Shown: positions 10,521 through 63,413 of the stretch, one piece after another
Position numbering within the stretch: position 1 is the first letter of the stretch
How the letters are laid out: every line of letters starts with the position of its first letter
Source: Taklimakanibacter lacteus
GTDB lineage: Bacteria > Pseudomonadota > Alphaproteobacteria > Rhizobiales > Aestuariivirgaceae
Assembly: GCA_003576695.1 (NCBI GenBank)
Contig: QOZQ01000001.1
Coordinates: 496,001-560,000 of the forward strand
Direction of reading: 5' to 3'
DNA length: 64,000 bases
Translations under genes and position numbers: made by a program
Notes under the pieces: model-generated
What the model was told of the DNA's origin: nothing
What the model saw: only the letters and a program-made list of their open reading frames with translations
Databases searched by the model: none

Positions 10521-11221
10521 CTAATCGAACTTGTAGCTGACGCCGATCCGGCCGACAAAAATCTCCTGGTTCACTTTGAAAGTGTCGGTCTCGTCTTCAT
10601 TGGACACCTCGCCTTTCTTCGAGCCGAGGTCGAAATAAAGGCCTTCGATCCGCACCAGCCAATTGTCGGTCCAGGCATGCTCGATACCGGCGCCGGCGAC
10701 CCAGCCGAAATCGAGATCGACCGTTTCCTTTGCCAGATTGAATGCTTCACTGCCGCCGTCATCCCAGCTGTGCTTGGCATCGGCAAAGGCCAGGCCACCG
10801 GTCACGTAGAACAGCGTGCGATCCGGTGCATAGCCCAATCTCGCCCGCAGCGAACCAGAAGATCGACGTCCGAAACAATGTCGAGACCCTCGGCGCCATC
10901 GAGACTCTCGTCTTCCTTCGAGCCGAACCAGGCTATATCCGCCTCGAGGCCGAAGACCAGCCGGTCATGCTGGACGTTTATGCCGGCCAACGCGCCCAGC
11001 ACCGCGGCCGTGTCATTCAACTCTTCATCAATCGCGACGGGATCGGCGTTGGAATCGTCATCCGTGCCCCGCCAATCCGAGGACGAGAACCCGACACCGG
11101 CAAAAATTCCGCCATAGACGCCGCTCCAGTCATAGGCGGCCGGTGCCTCGAAATCGGCCGCCTGCGCGGCTGATGCCGCAACAACCGATACGCAACCCGC
11201 CAGAAGCATCCTGCTGATCAT
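10521..11221 (-). pseudogene. Frameshifted Omp25-like outer membrane beta-barrel porin
   Basis: Two frames together make one porin. The first, from 11221, has a signal peptide ending SAAQA, then DFEAPAAYDWSGVYGGIFAG and continues to about residue 120. The second, ending at 10521, carries on as LRARLGYAPDRTLFYVTGGLAFADAKHSW and ends in YKFD with the terminal barrel strand. The frame changes near 10850-10858, where one base must be added, or two removed, to join them. The family is the OMP_b-brl/Omp25 group, and an intact paralogue is at 14445-15218. It may be a true pseudogene or a single sequencing error. Confidence 0.75.
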
Positions 11222-55493: not shown

Positions 55494-55645
55494 CCCTCGC
55501 CCCGCTTCAGCGGGGAGAGGGTAGGGGCCCATTGCGTAGCAATGGGTAGGGTGAGGGGCTTGGTGCAGGACTTCAACAAGCCCCTCACCCCTCCCACCGC
55601 TCTGCGGTGGGTCCCTCCCTTCTCCCCACTGAAGCAGGGAGAGGG
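55494..55645. repeat. Dispersed inverted repeat, family 3
   Basis: A related copy of the element at 6524-6675: arms with CGCCCCGCTTCAGCGGGGAG and CTCCCCACTGAAGCAGGGAG, plus inner arms CCCATTGCGTAGCAATGGG and CCACCGCTCTGCGGTGG. Like its relative it lies next to the start of a biotin carboxylase-type gene, here upstream of liuD. Confidence 0.87.
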
Positions 55646-55657
55646 TTGCGAGGTTCC

Positions 55658-57637
55658 ATGCTGAAGTCCGTCCTCATTGCCAATCGCGGCGAGATCGCCT
55701 GCCGGGTCATCCGCACCGCCAAGCGCATGGGGTTGCGCACTATCGCCGTTTACTCCGATGCCGATGCGCAGGCCCTGCATGTCGCTCAGGCTGACGAGGC
55801 GGTGCGCATCGGCGGACCGTTGGCGCGCGACAGCTATCTCAAAGCGGACGCCATCATCGAGGCGGCGAAGAAGACGGGCGCCGGGGCCATTCATCCAGGC
55901 TATGGCTTCCTCTCCGAGAATGCCGCCTTTGCGCAGGCCTGTGCCGAGGCGAAGATCGTCTTTGTCGGCCCGCCGCCGTCGGCGATCCGTGCCATGGGCG
56001 GCAAGAGCGAAGCCAAGGCGTTGATGGCGAAGGCCAATGTGCCACTGGTGCCAGGCTATCATGGCGAAGACCAGGACCCGAAGGTTCTCGAGAAAGCGGC
56101 CGACAAGATCGGCTATCCCGTCCTGATCAAGGCCTCGGCCGGCGGTGGCGGCAAGGGCATGAAGGTGGCGGCCAGCAAGGCCGAATTCCGCGACCAGCTC
56201 GCTTCCGCCCAGCGCGAAGCCAAATCTTCCTTCGGCGATGACCGGGTGCTGATCGAGAAATATCTCGAGAGACCGCGCCATGTGGAGATTCAGGTCTTCG
56301 CCGACAGCCACGGCAATTGCGTCTATCTGTTCGAGCGCGACTGCTCGATCCAGCGCCGGCATCAGAAAGTCATCGAGGAAGCGCCGGCGCCCGGCATGAC
56401 GGCAGCCTTGCGCAAGCGCATGGGCGAGGCCGCGGTCACGGCGGCCAAATCCATCGGCTATGTCGGGGCCGGCACGGTCGAGTTCCTGCTTGATGAGGAT
56501 GGCTCCTTCTATTTCATGGAAATGAACACCCGTCTCCAGGTCGAGCATCCGGTGACCGAACTCATCACCGGCCTCGATCTGGTCGAATGGCAATTGCGCG
56601 TGGCTTCGGATGAGAAGCTGCCGCTCGCCCAGGACCAACTCGTCCTCAACGGCCATGCTTTCGAAGTGCGCCTCTATGCCGAGGATCCCGACCGTGATTT
56701 CCTGCCGCAAACGGGACGCATCGCGCATCTGAGGTTCCCGGCCGAGAACGGCCATGTGCGGATCGATACCGGCATCACCGAAGGCAAGGAGATCAGCACC
56801 TATTACGATCCGATGATCGCCAAGCTCATCGTGTGGGACCGCGACCGAATGTCGGCACTGGCGCAATTGCGCCGGACACTCGGTGAAACGGAGATCGGCG
56901 GGCTCATCACCAACACCGCTTTCCTGGCGAGGCTCGCCGGCAACAAGGCCTTTGCCAAGGGCGATGTCGATACCGGCTTCATCGGGCGTCATGAGAAGGA
57001 ATTGCTGCCGAGCGTTCCGGCGGCCAGCGAAGATGTGCTGCTGCTGGCGGCGACGGGCCTTCTCCTCAGCGAGCGCCAAGTCTCGCTTGGCGATCCGTGG
57101 TCCAGCTCCGATGGCTGGCGCCACTATGGCGGCGCGCACGATCATCTGAGCCTGATCGATGTCAGCGGCGGCCAGACGGCCCACAAGCTCGTATTCGACT
57201 ATGCGAAGGACGGTTTCGTCTTCCATCTCAAGAGGGCGGCCCCAATCGTCAGGGCATCCCTGTCGGTGGATGGCCGGCTCATTGCCGATATCAGCGGACG
57301 CCGCATGGCAGCAGGCTTCGCGCGCACCGGCGACGACATCGCGCTCTTCCTCGATGGCATCAGCTATCGCCTCAAGCGTGCCGGCATCGCGTTCGAAGAT
57401 GAAAGCGGCGAGGCGGCGGCGCTCAAAGTCACGGCCCCGATGCCCGGGCGCATCATCGCCGTCCATGTCGCGGCCGGAAAGATGGTCGAGAAAGGCGCTC
57501 CGCTCATCGTGCTCGAGGCGATGAAGATGGAGCATACGCTGAAGGCGGGTCACGCGGGCAAGATCGAGCATGTCGGCTGCAAGTCGGGCGACCAGATCCG
57601 GGAAGGTCAGGAACTCTTACGTTTCGCAGCGTCCTGA
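55658..57637 (+). CDS. liuD: Methylcrotonoyl-CoA carboxylase, biotin-containing (alpha) subunit
   Basis: 659 residues. An N-terminal biotin carboxylase domain (MLKSVLIANRGEIACRVIRT, SAGGGGKGMKVA, EMNTRLQVEHPVTELITGLD) is followed by a linker domain and a C-terminal biotinyl domain with VLEAMKMEHTL (Lys about 623). ATG 55658 matches the family start. The 3' end of the gene is duplicated at 59500, on the far side of a 1.9-kb island. Confidence 0.95.
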   Translation: MLKSVLIANRGEIACRVIRTAKRMGLRTIAVYSDADAQALHVAQADEAVRIGGPLARDSYLKADAIIEAAKKTGAGAIHPGYGFLSENAAFAQACAEAKIVFVGPPPSAIRAMGGKSEAKALMAKANVPLVPGYHGEDQDPKVLEKAADKIGYPVLIKASAGGGGKGMKVAASKAEFRDQLASAQREAKSSFGDDRVLIEKYLERPRHVEIQVFADSHGNCVYLFERDCSIQRRHQKVIEEAPAPGMTAALRKRMGEAAVTAAKSIGYVGAGTVEFLLDEDGSFYFMEMNTRLQVEHPVTELITGLDLVEWQLRVASDEKLPLAQDQLVLNGHAFEVRLYAEDPDRDFLPQTGRIAHLRFPAENGHVRIDTGITEGKEISTYYDPMIAKLIVWDRDRMSALAQLRRTLGETEIGGLITNTAFLARLAGNKAFAKGDVDTGFIGRHEKELLPSVPAASEDVLLLAATGLLLSERQVSLGDPWSSSDGWRHYGGAHDHLSLIDVSGGQTAHKLVFDYAKDGFVFHLKRAAPIVRASLSVDGRLIADISGRRMAAGFARTGDDIALFLDGISYRLKRAGIAFEDESGEAAALKVTAPMPGRIIAVHVAAGKMVEKGAPLIVLEAMKMEHTLKAGHAGKIEHVGCKSGDQIREGQELLRFAAS

Positions 57638-57642
57638 TCGAT
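57597..57642 (+). repeat. Direct repeat left of the 1.9-kb island (liuD 3' end)
   Basis: The last 41 bp of liuD plus 5 bp recur at 59500-59545 with 44 of 46 bases identical (core AGGTCAGGAACTCTTACG, then TTTCGCAGCGTCCTGAT). Weaker similarity continues for another 40 bp on the right of both copies, through a GCGGTGCAATGAT block. In this copy the continuation resembles a degraded 3' end of the cytochrome gene at 59545. Confidence 0.9.
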
Positions 57643-57692
57643 TCACACGCCGCGAAGCGCGGTGCAATGATGGATCTGATATTTTGCCAATG

Positions 57693-58316
57693 TCACGTCT
57701 TGGCTTCCGATTCGGGTGAACGCTCGGACTTTCGACGCTTCGTGTGCAGCAGTTGCGCCAACGCGACTTCCCTGATCCAGGATATCATCTCCATATCGGC
57801 ACCGAGCGCTTCTGCGTCATCACACCAGTCGGTATCCAGCACGCAGTCCCACTTGCGCGGCATATCAGTAGAGTCGACGAGCGCCTCCATCGCCTCGTTC
57901 ACCGCTTCGACGGAGCCTGTCTTGACGGAGAGCCGGACCAGGTTTCCCGCCGCGTCATTCACGCCCCCCTGGTTCTGGATCGACAATTCGAGGGCTTCCC
58001 TTGCGCGCAAAAGTCCCGCCTCCAGTTCATTGTTCTCAATCAATGCCCTGGACAAACCCATCAACGATATGTCATCGCGGAACTCCTGATGGTACGCCTG
58101 CGCCAACTTGACGGCAGCTGCGGTATTCTCTGCCAATCCGCACTCAGAGATAGCGCACGTATGGAGTTCGACGCGCACATTCCACTCGCTTTCGGTTGCG
58201 AGACCGGACAGCAGCATGGCTGCGCTCTTTGGCATGGTTACGCCATCGATCTCCACGACCTCAATTCTATGAGGCTCTACTTGCTTTAGCAGAGACTTGA
58301 GATCGATTCTCTCCAC
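57693..58316 (-). CDS. Hypothetical helical-repeat protein (possible immunity partner)
   Basis: 207 residues; not assigned to a known family. The sequence is mostly helical with TPR-like spacing (AENTAAAVKLAQAYHQEFRDD, ALIENNELEAGLLRAREALELS), is acidic and lacks a signal peptide, so it is probably cytosolic. The N-terminus ERIDLKSLLKQVEPHRIEVVEIDG is strand-rich. It starts 6 bp after the stop of the upstream gene, in the same direction, inside a direct-repeat-flanked lower-GC island. Position and composition fit an immunity protein for that gene's product, but this is inference. Confidence 0.6.
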   Translation of the reverse strand: MERIDLKSLLKQVEPHRIEVVEIDGVTMPKSAAMLLSGLATESEWNVRVELHTCAISECGLAENTAAAVKLAQAYHQEFRDDISLMGLSRALIENNELEAGLLRAREALELSIQNQGGVNDAAGNLVRLSVKTGSVEAVNEAMEALVDSTDMPRKWDCVLDTDWCDDAEALGADMEMISWIREVALAQLLHTKRRKSERSPESEAKT

Positions 58317-58322
58317 TCGTCG

Positions 58323-59081
58323 CTACTTTCTCTTCCATCTCTTGCGCGGCTTGGGGAATCTTATACCATCTTCATCTGGGTCGCTCCAGGGCAATATCTC
58401 GCTTTCGCCTCTCAGGCATAGGTCGCGAATTACTTTCGCGCGCTCGTGGTATTTCCTCCAAGCTTCTGGACTATAACTGTAGTTCTTATGACACTGCTCG
58501 TTGTCATGATAAAATTGGTTGTGGCAAGCGTCCTTGTCAGCTTCAGTAAGCGGTTTCCTATCTTGATTGATTAAGGGAGGAAATGAGAGATTGTCGTCGG
58601 TGGGGGAGCAATAAGGCGGGAGTAATCTTTCCCAAAAAGAGTCCCAATAGCCCTGTTGAGGAGTTGCCGCCACATTGACCGCCAATGGCCCGCCATACAT
58701 GGCTTGCGGATTTGCCACTCGTGATAAAGTGCTGGGCCCCTTCTTGAAAGCAAGCAGATCGTGGTCAGGAATGCTGCGCGCCGCCGCCATGTCGGTAGGC
58801 TCATCAGTGTCGGAGAATGCTGCCGGATCGCGGAATGGATGAGGACGAGGCCTCGGTATCAACTTGCGCGATTGACTTACGGCGCTATCGCCTGCCGTCA
58901 CCCTTAGTCGCAATGCAGGAGGAAATCCCATTCCTCCAAATGCGGGCTCGCGGTAGCTTCGGTCGCCGGATTCCGCCTTGGTTTGTGCTATACTCTGGAG
59001 GATATTACCCCCATCCTTCCTGTTCCTCGCGCGCAGCAATGCCTGCACGATTTCATGAGTCCTTTGACGATCGAGAGCCAT
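58323..59081 (-). CDS. Hypothetical protein with Cys-containing C-terminal domain (possible toxin)
   Basis: 252 residues; ATG 59081 with AAAGGA upstream. The first 165 residues are low-complexity, with proline and arginine, like a linker. The C-terminal 75 residues (DACHNQFYHDNEQCHKNYSY, AWRKYHERAKVIRDLCLRGE, ILPWSDPDEDG) show three spaced cysteines. A CxxxF/YxxDxxxC ... RxxxCLRGE pattern of this kind is familiar from C-terminal domains of secreted or polymorphic-toxin-like proteins. No export domain is visible. It may be a displaced toxin tip, or an unrelated hypothetical protein. The adjacent downstream gene could be its immunity protein. Confidence 0.5.
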   Translation of the reverse strand: MALDRQRTHEIVQALLRARNRKDGGNILQSIAQTKAESGDRSYREPAFGGMGFPPALRLRVTAGDSAVSQSRKLIPRPRPHPFRDPAAFSDTDEPTDMAAARSIPDHDLLAFKKGPSTLSRVANPQAMYGGPLAVNVAATPQQGYWDSFWERLLPPYCSPTDDNLSFPPLINQDRKPLTEADKDACHNQFYHDNEQCHKNYSYSPEAWRKYHERAKVIRDLCLRGESEILPWSDPDEDGIRFPKPRKRWKRK

Positions 59082-59499
59082 CGGTTGATCCTTTGTCGGT
59101 CTCTGGGTGGAGGCTGACGCGCGTGTGGTCAGCCTTAGGAAACTTGATGATTTGGAGGTTTCTGGTCAGAAACGAGATGAAATGCCTTGAGAGGCGTCAC
59201 CCCGAATGGCGCGCATCCCAGGTTCGCATCTCGTTCTTTTGCGTGAAGCAGGATGATGGCCGGTCGCCAGCGTCGGCTTCGGCCTTGCCATCTGCCACGG
59301 CATCGTCGGGGCGCTTGGTGGAGCGATCAGCGCGACAAGCCCCACTGAAAGCGGGTAGGCACGGCCCGATCGGCGCATTCATGTTTCAGTCCGAAATACA
59401 AACGCCCGCGGGTTTGAGCCGCGGGCGCACATCATCTGACCCTGATATTCTCCAATCCAACGCTTGCGCACGCAATGTCAAAGGCTTTTGTGGCGTGAG
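59082..59499. other. Right part of the island without a supportable gene
   Basis: Several short open frames exist on both strands, but none has a recognisable product or ribosome-binding site. A GC-rich hairpin lies at 59403-59427. The stretch may hold the remains of the mobile element that delivered the gene pair. Confidence 0.4.
59392..59427 (-). terminator. Possible minus-strand terminator
   Basis: CGCCCGCGG and CCGCGGGCG form a perfect 9-bp stem over a 7-base loop. On the minus strand it is followed by TTTGTATTT. It would end transcription from the cytochrome gene on the minus strand. The U-tract is interrupted. Confidence 0.4.
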
Positions 59500-59545
59500 T
59501 CCGGAAAGGTCAGGAACTCTTACGTTTCGCAGCGTCCTGATGGAT
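59500..59545 (+). repeat. Direct repeat right of the 1.9-kb island (copy of liuD 3' end)
   Basis: 44 of 46 bases match 57597-57642. Here the liuD end is a non-coding fragment, while the adjoining cytochrome gene end is intact. The arrangement implies that liuD and the cytochrome gene once converged directly and that the island split them with duplication of the junction. Confidence 0.9.
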
Positions 59546-60414
59546 CAAGTGCCGTGGCAGGCGGTGCAATGATCGATCGGACCGCTCTTCCTGCCCGCCA
59601 GCGCTTCGCGGCGGTGGCAATCGCTGCAGAAAGCGTGGAATAGCCGGTCGATGCGCATGCTCTCGCTGTCCGACAAAGCCTTGTGGCAGGTGAGACAGTT
59701 CTCCTTACCTGTGCGATCGGTAAAATTGTGGTGACAGGCCGTGCAGACGAAGCCCGTATGATCGCCATGGTTGAAATTGGCGTGATCTATGGGCGATGAG
59801 CGCAGCGATGCGAGCCGCAATTGCGCCATCGGCCCGGTGGCGAGGGCAGCGATGATGCCGAGCAGGACGGTGGGAAGCGCAACAAGAATGAGCTTGCGCC
59901 TTTCCGGCAAGAGGGCGGCGAACACCAGGATGAGCATTCCCGCCAGGAGGAAGCCCAAGATGGCGGCATGCGTTCCGGCGATGAAAGCGACATGCAGGGC
60001 TGCCGCGACGACGACCATGAATCCCGCAATACGGTGGAGGATCAATGATTTGGGCGAGGTGAGCGCGCGCCGCACCGCAAGTGTCGCAAAGAGCGCCAGC
60101 GCCGCCACGATGCCCGCGATGATCTCGACAGGCACAGCACCATCCAGCCAGCGCCAGAAGGATGGCTCGAAGCCTGCAACCGCAAGGACATGCAGGCTCA
60201 CCGCGACAATCGCGAATGAGCCGATGTACCGGTGCCACGACCGTCCCTTGGCATCGGGTTGAAGCATGAGAGCGCAAGCCGAGAGCAGCAGTGCCAGGAT
60301 GCCGGGGGTGCGGACCAGCCACCATGTTGCATCGGTCGGCTGAAAAGCGAGCGCGAGGAGTGCTGCCGCCAGCAGCGCGCCACCCAGACGATCGGCACCG
60401 GATATCATCCGCAT
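59545..60414 (-). CDS. Membrane-bound tetraheme c-type cytochrome
   Basis: 289 residues from the ATG at 60414; earlier starts are possible. The first 190 residues contain about six hydrophobic helices (GALLAAALLALAF, IGSFAIVAVSLHVLAVAG, VEIIAGIVAALALFATLAV, GFMVVVAAALHVAFIAG and others), like small cytochrome b-type membrane domains. The C-terminal 80 residues carry four CxxCH heme sites: CTACHH, CLTCHK, CSDCHR and CTACHG, with extra histidines as ligands in the cytochrome c3/c7 manner. It would move electrons between the membrane and periplasm. It is divergent from the amine dehydrogenase cluster, so it may take part in the same electron path, by inference. Confidence 0.8.
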   Translation of the reverse strand: MRMISGADRLGGALLAAALLALAFQPTDATWWLVRTPGILALLLSACALMLQPDAKGRSWHRYIGSFAIVAVSLHVLAVAGFEPSFWRWLDGAVPVEIIAGIVAALALFATLAVRRALTSPKSLILHRIAGFMVVVAAALHVAFIAGTHAAILGFLLAGMLILVFAALLPERRKLILVALPTVLLGIIAALATGPMAQLRLASLRSSPIDHANFNHGDHTGFVCTACHHNFTDRTGKENCLTCHKALSDSESMRIDRLFHAFCSDCHRREALAGRKSGPIDHCTACHGT

Positions 60415-60571
60415 GCTGTGTTTTTCCACCTCAATCGACCAAAGGTATCGGTTGAAAACCCGAAAAGCCTGCCGGATAGTATGATCAACAGTACGCTCCA
60501 CACCAGATCGTACATACATAGGGGCGCTTCCTCATCGACCGATGCGGGAAGCGCTCGAGAGGAGGGGAACC

Positions 60572-61726
60572 GTGCCCATGCTTCGCACCGGATTTTTCGC
60601 CTGCGCTTTTGCCGCGCTCCTTCCCTTCATCGCCTCTGCCCAGGAGCCGCTCAAACCTGAACAGATGAGCGAGGAGACGATCCCGGCGGGAACGCCGAAG
60701 CTCTTCATCGCCGATCTTGCCATCGAGCATATCGTGGATGGCCGGGTGCGCATCTTCGATGCCAACTCAATGAAGCTTCTCGGCATGGTCGGCACCGGCT
60801 TCCTCGGCCAGATCTATATTCCGCCGAAGCAGGATGTCTTCTATATCGCCACCAGCTATATCGAGAAGATCACCCGCGGCAAGCGCAGCGACTGGCTCGA
60901 GGTCTATGATTCGAACACGCTGCATCTCAAGAGCGAGATCCCGATCGCGACAACAAGGGCGCAGGCGCTGAACTACCGGCCGCTGCTGCAGGGCTCGGTC
61001 GACGGCCGCTGGATCTTCGCCCAGAATGCGACGCCCGCGACATCGATCAGCGTGGTCGACCTCAACGCCCAGAAGCAGACCGCCGAGGTCGCCAATGCCG
61101 GCTGCTATGGCATCTTTCCCGCCGCCACCAATGGCCTGCGCTTCGCCACCATGTGCGGCGACGGCACTTTCGGCAGCTATACGCTGAAGGATGACGGCTC
61201 GGCGGCGGAGCGTGCCGCGTCCGAGCCCATCTTCGATGCCGACAAGGACGCGCTCTTCATCCATGGCGAGCGCGACGCCAACAACTGGCTCTTCGTGTCC
61301 TTCACCGGCAATATCTACCTGGTCGACCTGGAGGGCGCGGCGGCGAAGCTCGTCGAAATGATCGAGATGACCAAGGGGGTCGAGGGCGACTGGCGGCCGA
61401 GCGGCTATCAGACCCATGCCTTCCACCAGAAATCGGGCGTGGTGTTCGTTCTCATGCACAAGGGCGGCACCGAGGGTTCGCACAAGAATCCGGCGGAAGA
61501 GATCTGGGCCTATGATGTGCGCAACAAGAAACTCCTGTCGCGCTCGCCCACCACCACGGCCTTCTCGGTGGCGCTCGGACAGGGTGATGATCCGGTCGTC
61601 TATGCGATCGATCTCGTCGGCCTCAAGGTCATGCGCTACACCTCCGATGCGGCCAAGGGCTATGCGCTCACCGCCGCCGGCGAGCAGAAGGCGGGCAATA
61701 CGCCGATCCAGGCCGAGACGCAGTGA
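60572..61726 (+). CDS. mauB: Amine dehydrogenase large subunit (methylamine/aromatic amine type)
   Basis: 384 residues from a GTG at 60572 after AGGAGGGG; an ATG at 60578 is equally possible. A signal peptide ends LPFIASA. Family segments include KLFIADLAIEHIVDGRVRIFD, GTGFLGQIYIPPKQDVFYIATSY, NAGCYGIFPA, and the C-terminal blocks THAFHQKSGVVFVLMHKGG, THKNPAEEIWAYDV-like SHKNPAEEIWAYD, LVGLKVMRYTSD. This is the seven-bladed propeller subunit of periplasmic tryptophan tryptophylquinone amine dehydrogenases. Genes for MauE, MauD and the TTQ subunit follow directly. Whether the substrate is methylamine or an aromatic amine cannot be told from this subunit alone. Confidence 0.93.
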   Translation: MPMLRTGFFACAFAALLPFIASAQEPLKPEQMSEETIPAGTPKLFIADLAIEHIVDGRVRIFDANSMKLLGMVGTGFLGQIYIPPKQDVFYIATSYIEKITRGKRSDWLEVYDSNTLHLKSEIPIATTRAQALNYRPLLQGSVDGRWIFAQNATPATSISVVDLNAQKQTAEVANAGCYGIFPAATNGLRFATMCGDGTFGSYTLKDDGSAAERAASEPIFDADKDALFIHGERDANNWLFVSFTGNIYLVDLEGAAAKLVEMIEMTKGVEGDWRPSGYQTHAFHQKSGVVFVLMHKGGTEGSHKNPAEEIWAYDVRNKKLLSRSPTTTAFSVALGQGDDPVVYAIDLVGLKVMRYTSDAAKGYALTAAGEQKAGNTPIQAETQ

Positions 61727-62271
61727 TGATGCTCGACCCGCTCATCGTGCTCATCGCGTCGGGCGTGCTCATTGCCGTCTTTGTCAGGGCACTGTGGCAC
61801 AAGCTCAGCGACTTCGCCGTGTTCAAGGCCCTGTTCGCCGATTACGAGATGCTTCCCGCCGGTCTCATCGCCCCGGCATCGCTCATCCTGTTGCTGGCGG
61901 AAGCCGCGATTGTCATCGGATTCGTCGTTCCGGCGACAAGACAGGCGGCTGCGATTGGCGCGATCGTCCTGCTTGCGGTCTATGGGTTTGCCATTGCCGT
62001 CAATCTCAGGCGCGGGCGCTATATGATCGACTGCGGCTGCGGCGGATCGGGGCAGGGCCTGTCCTGGTTCCTCGTCGCCCGCAATGCGATCCTCATCCTT
62101 GTCGCCGGCCTGGCCCTCGCCGCGCCGACACCGCGCGACATCTCGTTCACCGATGCGATCGTGCTCGGCCTGTCGGTGGTCACCGTATGGCTCGCCCTCC
62201 TCGCCAGCGAGCAGGCTGCGGTGAATGATGCGCATCGCCAGTTCATCCGCAACAGCAGAGGCAAGGGCTGA
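61726..62271 (+). CDS. mauE: Methylamine utilization membrane protein MauE
   Basis: 181 residues, starting at the ATG overlapping the mauB stop. Four to five hydrophobic helices and the CGCGGSGQGLSW motif are typical of MauE/DoxX-like proteins. MauE works with MauD in the maturation, or disulfide formation, of the cysteine-rich TTQ subunit. The start lies among GTG-ATG-ATG; any may be used. It is the second gene of the operon. Confidence 0.9.
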   Translation: MMLDPLIVLIASGVLIAVFVRALWHKLSDFAVFKALFADYEMLPAGLIAPASLILLLAEAAIVIGFVVPATRQAAAIGAIVLLAVYGFAIAVNLRRGRYMIDCGCGGSGQGLSWFLVARNAILILVAGLALAAPTPRDISFTDAIVLGLSVVTVWLALLASEQAAVNDAHRQFIRNSRGKG

Positions 62272-62274
62272 CCC

Positions 62275-62871
62275 ATGGATCCGTTCACCATCGCGCTCAT
62301 CCTGCTTTGGGCCGTTGTCCTGGCGCTCGGCATCGTGGTGATCGCGCTGGCCCGCCAGATCGGCATATTGTTCGAGAGGGTGGCGCCCATGGGGGCGCTG
62401 ATGACCGATGCCGGCCCCAAGATCGGCGAAGCCTCTCCCAAATTCGCGCTCCAGGCGCTCGCCACCGGCAAGCCGGTCTCGATCGGCGCCGCCTCGGGAC
62501 GCGCCCTTCTCATCTTCTTCCTGTCGCCCACCTGCCCGGTCTGCAAGAAGCTGCTGCCGGTGCTCAAATCGGCGCAGAAGGCCGAGAAGGGCTGGCTCGA
62601 CATCGTGCTGGCCAGCGACGGCGAGGCGCCCAGGCATGAGGCCTTCATCACGAGCCACAAGCTTGACGGCTTCCCCTATGTGCTGTCGAGCGATCTCGGC
62701 ATGGCCTATCGGGTCAGCCGGCTGCCCTATGGCGTCGTTCTCGATGGTGAAGGCACGGTCAGGGCCAAGGGACTGATCAACAACCGCGAACAGCTGGAAA
62801 GCCTGTTCAACGCGAAGGAAATGGGTGTCGCCTCGATCCAGGGCTTCCTGGATCAGGTCAAGGAGGCTTGA
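62275..62871 (+). CDS. mauD: Methylamine dehydrogenase accessory protein MauD (thioredoxin-like)
   Basis: 198 residues. One N-terminal membrane helix (FTIALILLWAVVLALGIVVIAL) is followed by a thioredoxin fold with the CPVC active site (FFLSPTCPVCKKLLPVLK) and the cis-proline region SRLPYGVVLDGEG. It is needed for disulfides in the small subunit. It starts 3 bp after mauE, so they are co-translated. Confidence 0.94.
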   Translation: MDPFTIALILLWAVVLALGIVVIALARQIGILFERVAPMGALMTDAGPKIGEASPKFALQALATGKPVSIGAASGRALLIFFLSPTCPVCKKLLPVLKSAQKAEKGWLDIVLASDGEAPRHEAFITSHKLDGFPYVLSSDLGMAYRVSRLPYGVVLDGEGTVRAKGLINNREQLESLFNAKEMGVASIQGFLDQVKEA

Positions 62872-62882
62872 GGAGGGTTGCC

Positions 62883-63413
62883 ATGTTGAGATCATTGCAC
62901 GGGCTCATGGAAAGCTTCGACCGGCTGAGCGAGGCGGCGGCGCGGCTTGGCGCGCAGCGCATCGGGCGGCGCAATGCGCTGTCGGCGCTCGGCACCGCCA
63001 TTGCCGGCAGCGCCATCCTGCCGATGCTGCCCTTCGACCGCTCGGGGGGGGCCGCGCAAGCGGCCAGCACCCGCGATGACGGCGATGAGACCTGCGAATA
63101 TTGGCGCTATTGCGCGCTCGATGGCTTCCTGTGCACCTGCTGCGGCGGATCGCTGGCCAGTTGCCCGCCAGGTGCTGAGCCCTCCAAGGTCACCTGGGTC
63201 GGGACCTGCCAGAATCCCAAGGACAACAAGGCCTATCTCATCAGCTATAATGACTGCTGCGGCCAGGTGTCGTGCGGCAACTGCCTGTGCAACTACAATC
63301 TGCGCGAACGGCCCGGCTATCGCATGGGCATCCACAATGACATCAACTGGTGCATGGCCAATTCACGCGGCCTCTATCACTGCACCGTCGCGGCGGTGAT
63401 CGGGACCGGCTGA
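62883..63413 (+). CDS. mauA: Amine dehydrogenase small (TTQ-bearing) subunit
   Basis: 176 residues; ATG 62883 follows GAGGAGGG. The leader has a twin-arginine-like segment (RIGRRNALSALGTAIAG) and a long hydrophobic stretch, consistent with Tat-type export of MauA. The mature part is packed with cysteines (CEYWRYCALDGFLCTCCGG, YNDCCGQVSCGNCLC). The two TTQ-forming tryptophans fall in KVTWVGTCQ and DINWCMANS, and the catalytic Asp equivalent is in YNDCCG. The product forms the active-site subunit with MauB. Confidence 0.95.
   Translation: MLRSLHGLMESFDRLSEAAARLGAQRIGRRNALSALGTAIAGSAILPMLPFDRSGGAAQAASTRDDGDETCEYWRYCALDGFLCTCCGGSLASCPPGAEPSKVTWVGTCQNPKDNKAYLISYNDCCGQVSCGNCLCNYNLRERPGYRMGIHNDINWCMANSRGLYHCTVAAVIGTG

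What the first reader, a model, noticed from the sequence alone, without database searches (positions are those of the whole stretch)
57597..59545. 1.9-kb island inserted at the liuD 3' end with duplication of the target
The last 41 bp of liuD recur in direct orientation at 59500 (44 of 46 bases), and weaker similarity extends into the 3' end of the cytochrome gene in both copies. The simplest history is that liuD and the cytochrome gene once ended tail to tail, and that a lower-GC segment entered with duplication of the junction. The segment carries only two genes (a Cys-rich C-terminal protein and a helical partner) and no recognisable integrase, so its route of entry is unknown.
Basis: partly seen in the sequence, partly recalled or inferred. 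Interest (0 to 1): 0.75.

Follow-up and report, generated by a model that had tools for sequence, protein, structure and literature searches.

The report
Roaming two-gene unit beside duplicated gene ends
A short low-GC unit with its own promoter-like sequence and two genes has entered beside a metabolic gene and left a second copy of that gene's end; relatives of the unit lie at other places in sister genomes, some of them also beside duplicated gene ends.

Summary
The direct repeat is 83 columns long (57597-57679 / 59500-59581, 70 matches) and covers both the liuD end and the cytochrome end. The segment between carries a promoter-like block, a 252-aa modular protein and a 207-aa TPR-like partner, at 53-57% GC against 64% for 563 long ORFs. 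In 4 of 4 other genus genomes liuD is followed by an acyl-CoA dehydrogenase gene. The liuD/cytochrome junction is therefore itself derived, made by a methylamine-dehydrogenase (mau) cluster; because the repeat spans that junction, the segment came later. The partner gene occurs at three more places in two sister genomes; two of those also have a duplicated target (tRNA-Sec 82 bp, moeB-like end about 45 bp), against 4 of 1500 random placements. Fifteen relatives sharing only the N-terminus lack such repeats. The two halves of the repeat diverged unequally, so a one-step target duplication fits poorly. I favour capture by single-crossover or one-ended recombination of an effector-immunity-like unit. 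Function and delivery are unproven: a type VI sheath gene was found in 0 of 5 genus genomes.

The parts
55658..57637 (+). liuD (acyl-CoA carboxylase biotin-carboxylase subunit); its 3' end is the duplicated target
   Evidence: orthologues at 79-85% amino-acid identity in 4 of 4 genus relatives
57597..57679 (+). left copy of the direct repeat: functional liuD end plus decayed copy of the cytochrome gene end
57680..59499 (.). inserted segment between the repeats
   Evidence: not at this site in 4 of 4 relatives
57693..58316 (-). 207-aa TPR-like protein, candidate immunity/partner; GTG start 6 nt after the stop of the upstream gene
58323..59081 (-). 252-aa modular protein: N-terminus shared with M15-peptidase-like paralogues, different C-terminus with cysteines at 158, 186, 197, 222; candidate effector
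59402..59428 (-). 10-bp-stem hairpin followed by a T-rich stretch just downstream of the promoter-like block
59441..59481 (-). promoter-like block shared by the family
   Evidence: 9 pattern matches in 3 of 5 genus genomes, 0 for the reversed control
59500..59581 (+). right copy of the direct repeat: liuD-end relic plus functional cytochrome gene end
59545..60519 (-). multihaem cytochrome / membrane protein gene, left edge of the mau cluster
   Evidence: own genome only among 60 searched, own included
60542..61726 (+). methylamine dehydrogenase heavy chain
   Evidence: PF06433, E 1.4e-31
61723..62271 (+). MauE
   Evidence: PF07291
62275..62871 (+). MauD-like thioredoxin-fold protein (called MauD by position, from recall; Pfam gives redoxin/thioredoxin families)
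62868..63413 (+). methylamine dehydrogenase light chain
   Evidence: PF02975; 0 of 4 genus relatives

Best explanation
A transcription unit of about 1.8 kb, from a promoter-like block to the end of the second gene, made of a modular effector-like protein and a TPR-like partner, was captured at the junction between liuD and the cytochrome gene after a mau cluster had been inserted there. Capture duplicated part of the target. The likeliest route is single crossing-over (or a one-ended, homology-facilitated event) with incoming DNA from a related strain that carried a slightly different version of the same junction next to the unit. One repeat copy would then be partly resident and partly imported, and the two could differ from the start. 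Shown: the repeat, the empty site in four relatives, the order mau first and unit second, the unit at other places in two sister genomes, and duplicated targets at 3 of 4 sites. Inferred: the recombination route. Inferred with less support: that the pair is an effector with its immunity protein, kept because the partner protects.
For: Repeat and null tests. Empty site in 4 of 4 relatives. The repeat contains the liuD/cytochrome junction, so that junction pre-existed. mau light chain absent from 4 of 4 genus relatives. Partner homologues at three other places. Duplicated targets there: tRNA-Sec 82 bp 94%, moeB-like gene end 40 bp 85% by BLAST, about 45 bp by local alignment. Background: 4 of 1500 random placements reach E 1e-6. 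Unequal divergence, 1/41 against 12/42, p 0.0016. Unit edges differ between sites, which argues against element-defined ends. Partner under purifying selection, dN/dS 0.29-0.41 in six pairs, open at 3 of 4 sites and with a late stop at the fourth, while the effector-like gene is whole only here. In E. coli, 56 of 60 Lac- integrants of a plasmid carrying the lacZ 3' end gave the PCR product diagnostic of a lacZ-end duplication; 14 sequenced ones had duplications of 109-950 bp, ascribed to single crossing-over of a circular molecule that had lost part of the fragment (PMC3240628, passages read). A model akin to homology-facilitated illegitimate recombination was proposed for effector-immunity modules in V. 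cholerae (PMC5361080, passages read).
Against: Single crossing-over does not explain the tRNA-Sec case plainly: the intact tRNA lies left of the unit, but the right copy stops within the gene and no displaced 3' half follows it. No donor strain with the liuD/cytochrome/unit arrangement was found. One of the four sites (G001 C31) has no convincing repeat. Duplicated gene ends not tied to this unit occur too, for example a TetR-family gene end of 63 bp, 95%. Homology-facilitated events usually delete rather than duplicate target DNA, according to PMC3240628. For the effector reading: no toxin-domain hit, and a type VI sheath gene in 0 of 5 genus genomes. The 3-of-4 pattern was noticed before it was tested.
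Confidence: 0.45

Rival explanations
1. One-step insertion with a long target-site duplication: a staggered break or an unknown transposition step filled in to leave about 75-85 bp on both sides, followed by drift of the non-functional halves. This is.
For: The layout of two functional halves and two relic halves is that of a target duplication. A TetR-family gene end elsewhere in the genome shows a similar 63-bp layout.
Against: Unequal divergence of the two relic halves, 1/41 against 12/42. The tRNA-Sec case is not symmetrical. Duplication length varies from about 45 to about 83-89 bp, and unit ends are not shared.
Confidence: 0.27
2. Remnant of a site-specific island (tyrosine-recombinase type) whose integrase was lost or acted in trans; the repeats are att-like.
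For: Targets are gene 3' ends or a tRNA gene.
Against: No integrase match in the segment's two proteins. The three targets show no evident similarity by eye. At the tRNA the identity block covers the 5' part, not the 3' end as usual for such islands (the usual pattern is recalled, not looked up).
Confidence: 0.1
3. Two-step replacement: an older cytochrome/mau copy was overwritten by the unit, and a second mau cluster was later re-acquired from a relative together with about 41 bp of its liuD end.
For: Explains the old-looking cytochrome relic and the young-looking liuD relic. Exchange of methylamine dehydrogenase genes is called prevalent in nature in the title of PMC5023228 (listing only).
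Against: Needs two acquisitions of the same cluster at the same place; no strain with the intermediate was seen.
Confidence: 0.15
4. Chance similarity or assembly artefact.
For: The genome is a 24-contig draft.
Against: Score 55 against a null maximum of 18; the segment lies inside a 663-kb contig; homologous units occur in other assemblies.
Confidence: 0.02

Closest known systems
Effector-immunity modules displaced along type VI clusters in Vibrio cholerae (PMC5361080, passages read)
   Same: Effector-like gene followed by a partner gene; partner kept where the effector is lost; a homology-facilitated one-ended recombination model with a conserved upstream stretch as anchor.
   Different: Here the units lie at unrelated loci; 0 of 5 genus genomes have a type VI sheath gene; duplicated gene ends flank 3 of 4 units.
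lacZ-end duplications by single crossing-over in E. coli (PMC3240628, passages read)
   Same: Inserted DNA flanked by a duplicated gene 3' end of variable length.
   Different: Laboratory plasmid; 109-950 bp there against about 45-83 bp here.
[quoted passage not shown]
   Same: Immunity-like genes kept without their effectors.
   Different: rAID is described there by a tyrosine recombinase and an array of short genes; neither was seen here.

Membership tests
Polymorphic toxin-immunity pair | Constant N-terminus joined to different C-termini | tested here: met
   N-terminus shared with M15-peptidase-like paralogues on G000 C4 and C20 and with repeats in G002; C-terminus differs
Polymorphic toxin-immunity pair | Small partner gene directly downstream | tested here: met
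   Partner start lies 6 nt after the stop
Polymorphic toxin-immunity pair | Recognised toxin domain at the C-terminus | tested here: not met
   No Pfam, NCBIfam, PHROGs or PADLOC hit for the 252-aa protein at the limits used
Polymorphic toxin-immunity pair | Partner neutralises the effector | not testable with these tools
   needs expression tests
Type VI secretion effector-immunity module | Type VI machinery in the genome | tested here: not met
   PF05943 in 0 of 5 genus genomes; the control rang in E. coli; only the sheath gene was searched
Site-specific integrative island | Integrase gene in the element | tested here: not met
   no integrase match for its two proteins; loss or action in trans not excluded
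Site-specific integrative island | Shared target core and defined element ends | tested here: inconclusive
   three targets unrelated by eye, edges differ; no formal motif search was made
Transposon-type insertion | Terminal inverted repeats at the segment ends | tested here: not met
   no pair joining the two ends among the 25 longest of 46 inverted repeats of 55500-61500 (minimum 12 nt)
TPR-fold protein (partner) | TPR-like antiparallel helix pairs | tested here: met
   model pLDDT 85.8; most of the 50 PDB matches shown are TPR proteins, best E 1.0e-3, TM 0.55; Pfam TPR_19 only below its cut-off

The most novel reading that the evidence does not exclude
The unit is a minimal cassette (promoter, variable two-gene cargo) that spreads within a bacterial genus and enters beside gene ends by a repeatable process that copies 45-85 bp of the target, without an integrase, transposase or terminal repeats of its own: a route of gene mobility not yet described.
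Probability: 0.1. Interest if true: 0.8.

Novelty: new variant of a known kind. Interest (0 to 1): 0.42.

Why it matters
Small islets without an integrase rarely record how they entered. Here the duplicated target spans a junction that was itself made by an earlier insertion, so the order of events can be read, and the unequal divergence of the two halves discriminates between routes. The same partner gene at four different sites gives repeated trials of one process, and a testable candidate for a protective gene kept after its effector decays.

Tried and rejected
Relatives with the N-terminus only, as the mobile form: 15 loci tested (13 of the 14 N-terminal matches in G002, and 2 paralogues in G000). 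No flanking repeat at E 0.05 except one 18-bp match at L022. So the duplication goes with the partner-bearing units, not with every family member.

A third copy of the liuD end beside the acyl-CoA dehydrogenase gene, which would show if the mau cluster had duplicated the target too: none at E 0.001.

Dating by synonymous divergence: partner dS is 0.48-0.56 for G000 against the others, below liuD dS of 0.72-0.89 against G001-G003 and 1.08 against G004. This allows transfer inside the genus after the species split but does not prove it.

A first figure for the unequal divergence (2/46 against 11/30) used a partition chosen by eye and a miscounted difference. One search replaces it with a split at the liuD stop codon; a split at column 46 gives 3/46 against 10/37, p 0.015.

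Wider homologues of the partner: none in viral contigs or plasmids; two in genome contigs, with the contig lengths of the two G001 contigs. The 252-aa protein gave none in genome contigs. The partner model from one sequence was poor (pLDDT 45.9); three sequences gave 85.8. Sequence searches of solved structures gave nothing below E 0.1. No close match in the viral structure library either (best E 3.8e-3).

The 63-bp repeat at a TetR-family gene end (G000 C1 5.5-6.1 kb) encloses an insert holding a 389-bp repetitive element. The two other long copies of that element have no long flanking repeat, so it was kept as background only.

Literature: six searches were answered. No description of this unit was seen among the titles and abstract starts listed; most subscription journals are not in the library.
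Full report
Observation. Ungapped it is 44 of 46 bases at 57597-57642 and 59500-59545, with a second matching block at 57659-57679 / 59561-59581. As one gapped alignment it has 83 columns and 70 matches. The best local score between the two flanks is 55, against a maximum of 18 in 1000 resampled pairs. A 141-bp query across the left copy finds only these two places in the 5.78-Mb genome. The sequence before each copy is unrelated.

What the repeat contains. In the right copy the liuD stop and the cytochrome stop face each other with 4 bases between them, which is a tail-to-tail junction. The left copy has the intact liuD end followed by a decayed version of the cytochrome end. So the duplicated piece is the junction itself. 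Split at the liuD stop, 1 of 41 columns differ in the liuD part and 12 of 42 in the rest (Fisher p 0.0016); split at column 46 it is 3 of 46 against 10 of 37 (p 0.015). After a one-step duplication both non-functional halves should drift alike, so this counts against it, at moderate strength.

Order of events. In G001-G004, the four other genomes of the genus held, liuD (79-85% identical protein) is followed by an acyl-CoA dehydrogenase gene, then enoyl-CoA hydratase and 3-hydroxyisobutyrate dehydrogenase family genes (homology by DNA; Pfam names from the copies in this genome and, for the first gene, also in G002). In this genome that homology resumes 6.7 kb further on. The 6.7 kb hold the segment, the cytochrome gene and methylamine dehydrogenase genes (heavy chain, MauE, a MauD-like protein, light chain, a cytochrome c). 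The light chain family is in 0 of 4 genus relatives and in 2 of 60 genomes searched, own included; the cytochrome is in 1 of 60, the own genome. Since the repeat spans the liuD/cytochrome junction, the mau cluster came first and the segment second.

The unit. On the minus strand it has a promoter-like block (59441-59481) that begins 18 bp inside the right repeat, a hairpin (59402-59428; the 46-nt stretch around it folds at -21.6 kcal/mol, z -3.0), a 252-aa gene and, 6 nt after its stop, a 207-aa gene that ends 13 bp before the left repeat. The promoter-like block is shared by family members: a strict pattern gives 9 matches in 3 of 5 genus genomes and none when reversed. Of four of these nine loci read, the two in G004 have no family ORF after the block. 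GC of the genes is 57.1% and 53.2%, at or below the 0.2 percentile of 563 long ORFs.

The proteins. The first 130 or so residues of the 252-aa protein are shared with two paralogues of the same genome (the one on C4 is M15-peptidase-like: PF08291 E 1.7e-4, just under its cut-off) and, in part, with 14 short, mostly decayed copies in G002. Its C-terminal part has four cysteines (158, 186, 197, 222) and in the 100 genomes searched is shared only with the partner-bearing relatives. Its dN/dS is 0.29-0.41 in six pairs. It is open in three of the four and has a late stop in the fourth, while the effector-like gene is whole only here. Its model from three sequences (pLDDT 85.8) is a TPR-like helical repeat.

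Other sites. The unit sits after selB/tRNA-Sec in G002, after a ThiF-family (moeB-like) gene in G001, and next to a RidA-like (Ribonuc_L-PSP) gene in G001. The first two have duplicated targets: 82 bp at 94%, E 5e-31, covering the 5' part of the tRNA-Sec gene; and 40-45 bp of the ThiF-family gene end, E 4e-6. The third has none worth the name. So 3 of 4 units have one. With matched flank size, 4 of 1500 random placements in three 381-kb stretches of G000 and G002 reach E 1e-6, and 20 of 1500 reach 1e-3. Taken at face value 3 of 4 has p about 8e-8, but the pattern was noticed before the test. None of 15 relatives with the N-terminus only has a comparable one. In G002 the selB stretch had no long match in the other four genomes, so in two of three cases the unit sits beside what looks like an earlier acquisition.

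Mechanism. Unit edges differ between sites: G000/G002 homology begins at 57673 here, but about 90 bp past the tRNA in G002, while in G001 C22 the target copy overlaps the end of the partner gene. This argues against an element with fixed ends. A laboratory parallel exists: in E. coli, 56 of 60 Lac- integrants of a plasmid carrying the lacZ end gave the PCR product of a duplicated lacZ end, explained by single crossing-over of recircularised DNA (PMC3240628, passages read). For effector-immunity modules a homology-facilitated one-ended route has been proposed (PMC5361080, passages read). Import of the unit from a strain with a diverged version of the junction would explain the unequal halves. 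The tRNA-Sec site does not fit neatly, since the right copy is cut inside the tRNA gene; I leave that open.

Function. The layout (constant N-terminus, changed C-terminus, downstream TPR partner kept under selection after loss of the first gene) is that of an effector-immunity pair. Against it stand the lack of any toxin-domain match and the absence of a type VI sheath gene in 5 of 5 genus genomes. I put this reading at about 0.4. A chaperone-client pair is the main alternative.

Background caution. A scan of 1.2 Mb listed 51 direct-repeat pairs with at most three matches in the scanned DNA and start-to-start spacing under 7 kb; 298 were found before that filter. I read the surroundings of 10 of them. 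Some are paralogous coding sequence, but there are also a TetR-family gene end (63 bp, 95%), a tRNA-like pair (94 bp, 97%) and a dusA-like fragment (182 bp, 81%; these last two names by recall). Duplicated gene ends are thus not unique to this unit.

Verdict. A real, integrase-free insertion whose history can be ordered, belonging to a small family seen only in this genus so far, present at several unrelated sites, 3 of 4 of them with duplicated targets. Overall it is a new variant of a known kind.

Noticed in passing
window 59545 to about 63850, continuing in L044 to 11313: A mau cluster not found in the other four genomes of the genus lies between liuD and the acyl-CoA dehydrogenase gene that follows liuD in all four relatives, splitting what looks like a branched-chain amino-acid degradation operon.
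   Followed up: yes
G002: L005, L011, L013-L023, L179: A dispersed element of about 600 bp, at least 15 copies (14 N-terminal matches plus L179), with a conserved promoter-like block, a short ORF related to an M15-peptidase-like gene and variable ends; no long flanking repeats in the 13 tested.
   Followed up: partly
L173 and L176 (G004): The same promoter-like block stands alone, without the family ORF, at two places in G004.
   Followed up: no
G000 C1 5525-6131 (L100): A TetR-family gene end is duplicated (63 bp, 95%) around an insert that holds a 389-bp repetitive element, also on C18 (100%) and C21 (89%), where the copies seem to end in inverted repeats.
   Followed up: partly
L045 (G002 selB / tRNA-Sec): selB found in one of five genomes of the genus, bordered by the unit and a truncated second copy of the tRNA-Sec gene.
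   Followed up: partly
L087:3539-4348 (G003): The spacer after the ThiF-family gene holds the unit in G001, a DUF3800 gene in G003 and other spacers in G000, G002 and G004: a variable site.
   Followed up: partly
L046 about 10942-11030: A short palindromic repeat with dozens of matches in the genomes of the genus lies next to the unit.
   Followed up: no
G002 C1 about 4504353-4505719: A dusA-like fragment of 182 bp (81%; name by recall) lies about 1.2 kb from the matching sequence, possibly the scar of a former island.
   Followed up: no
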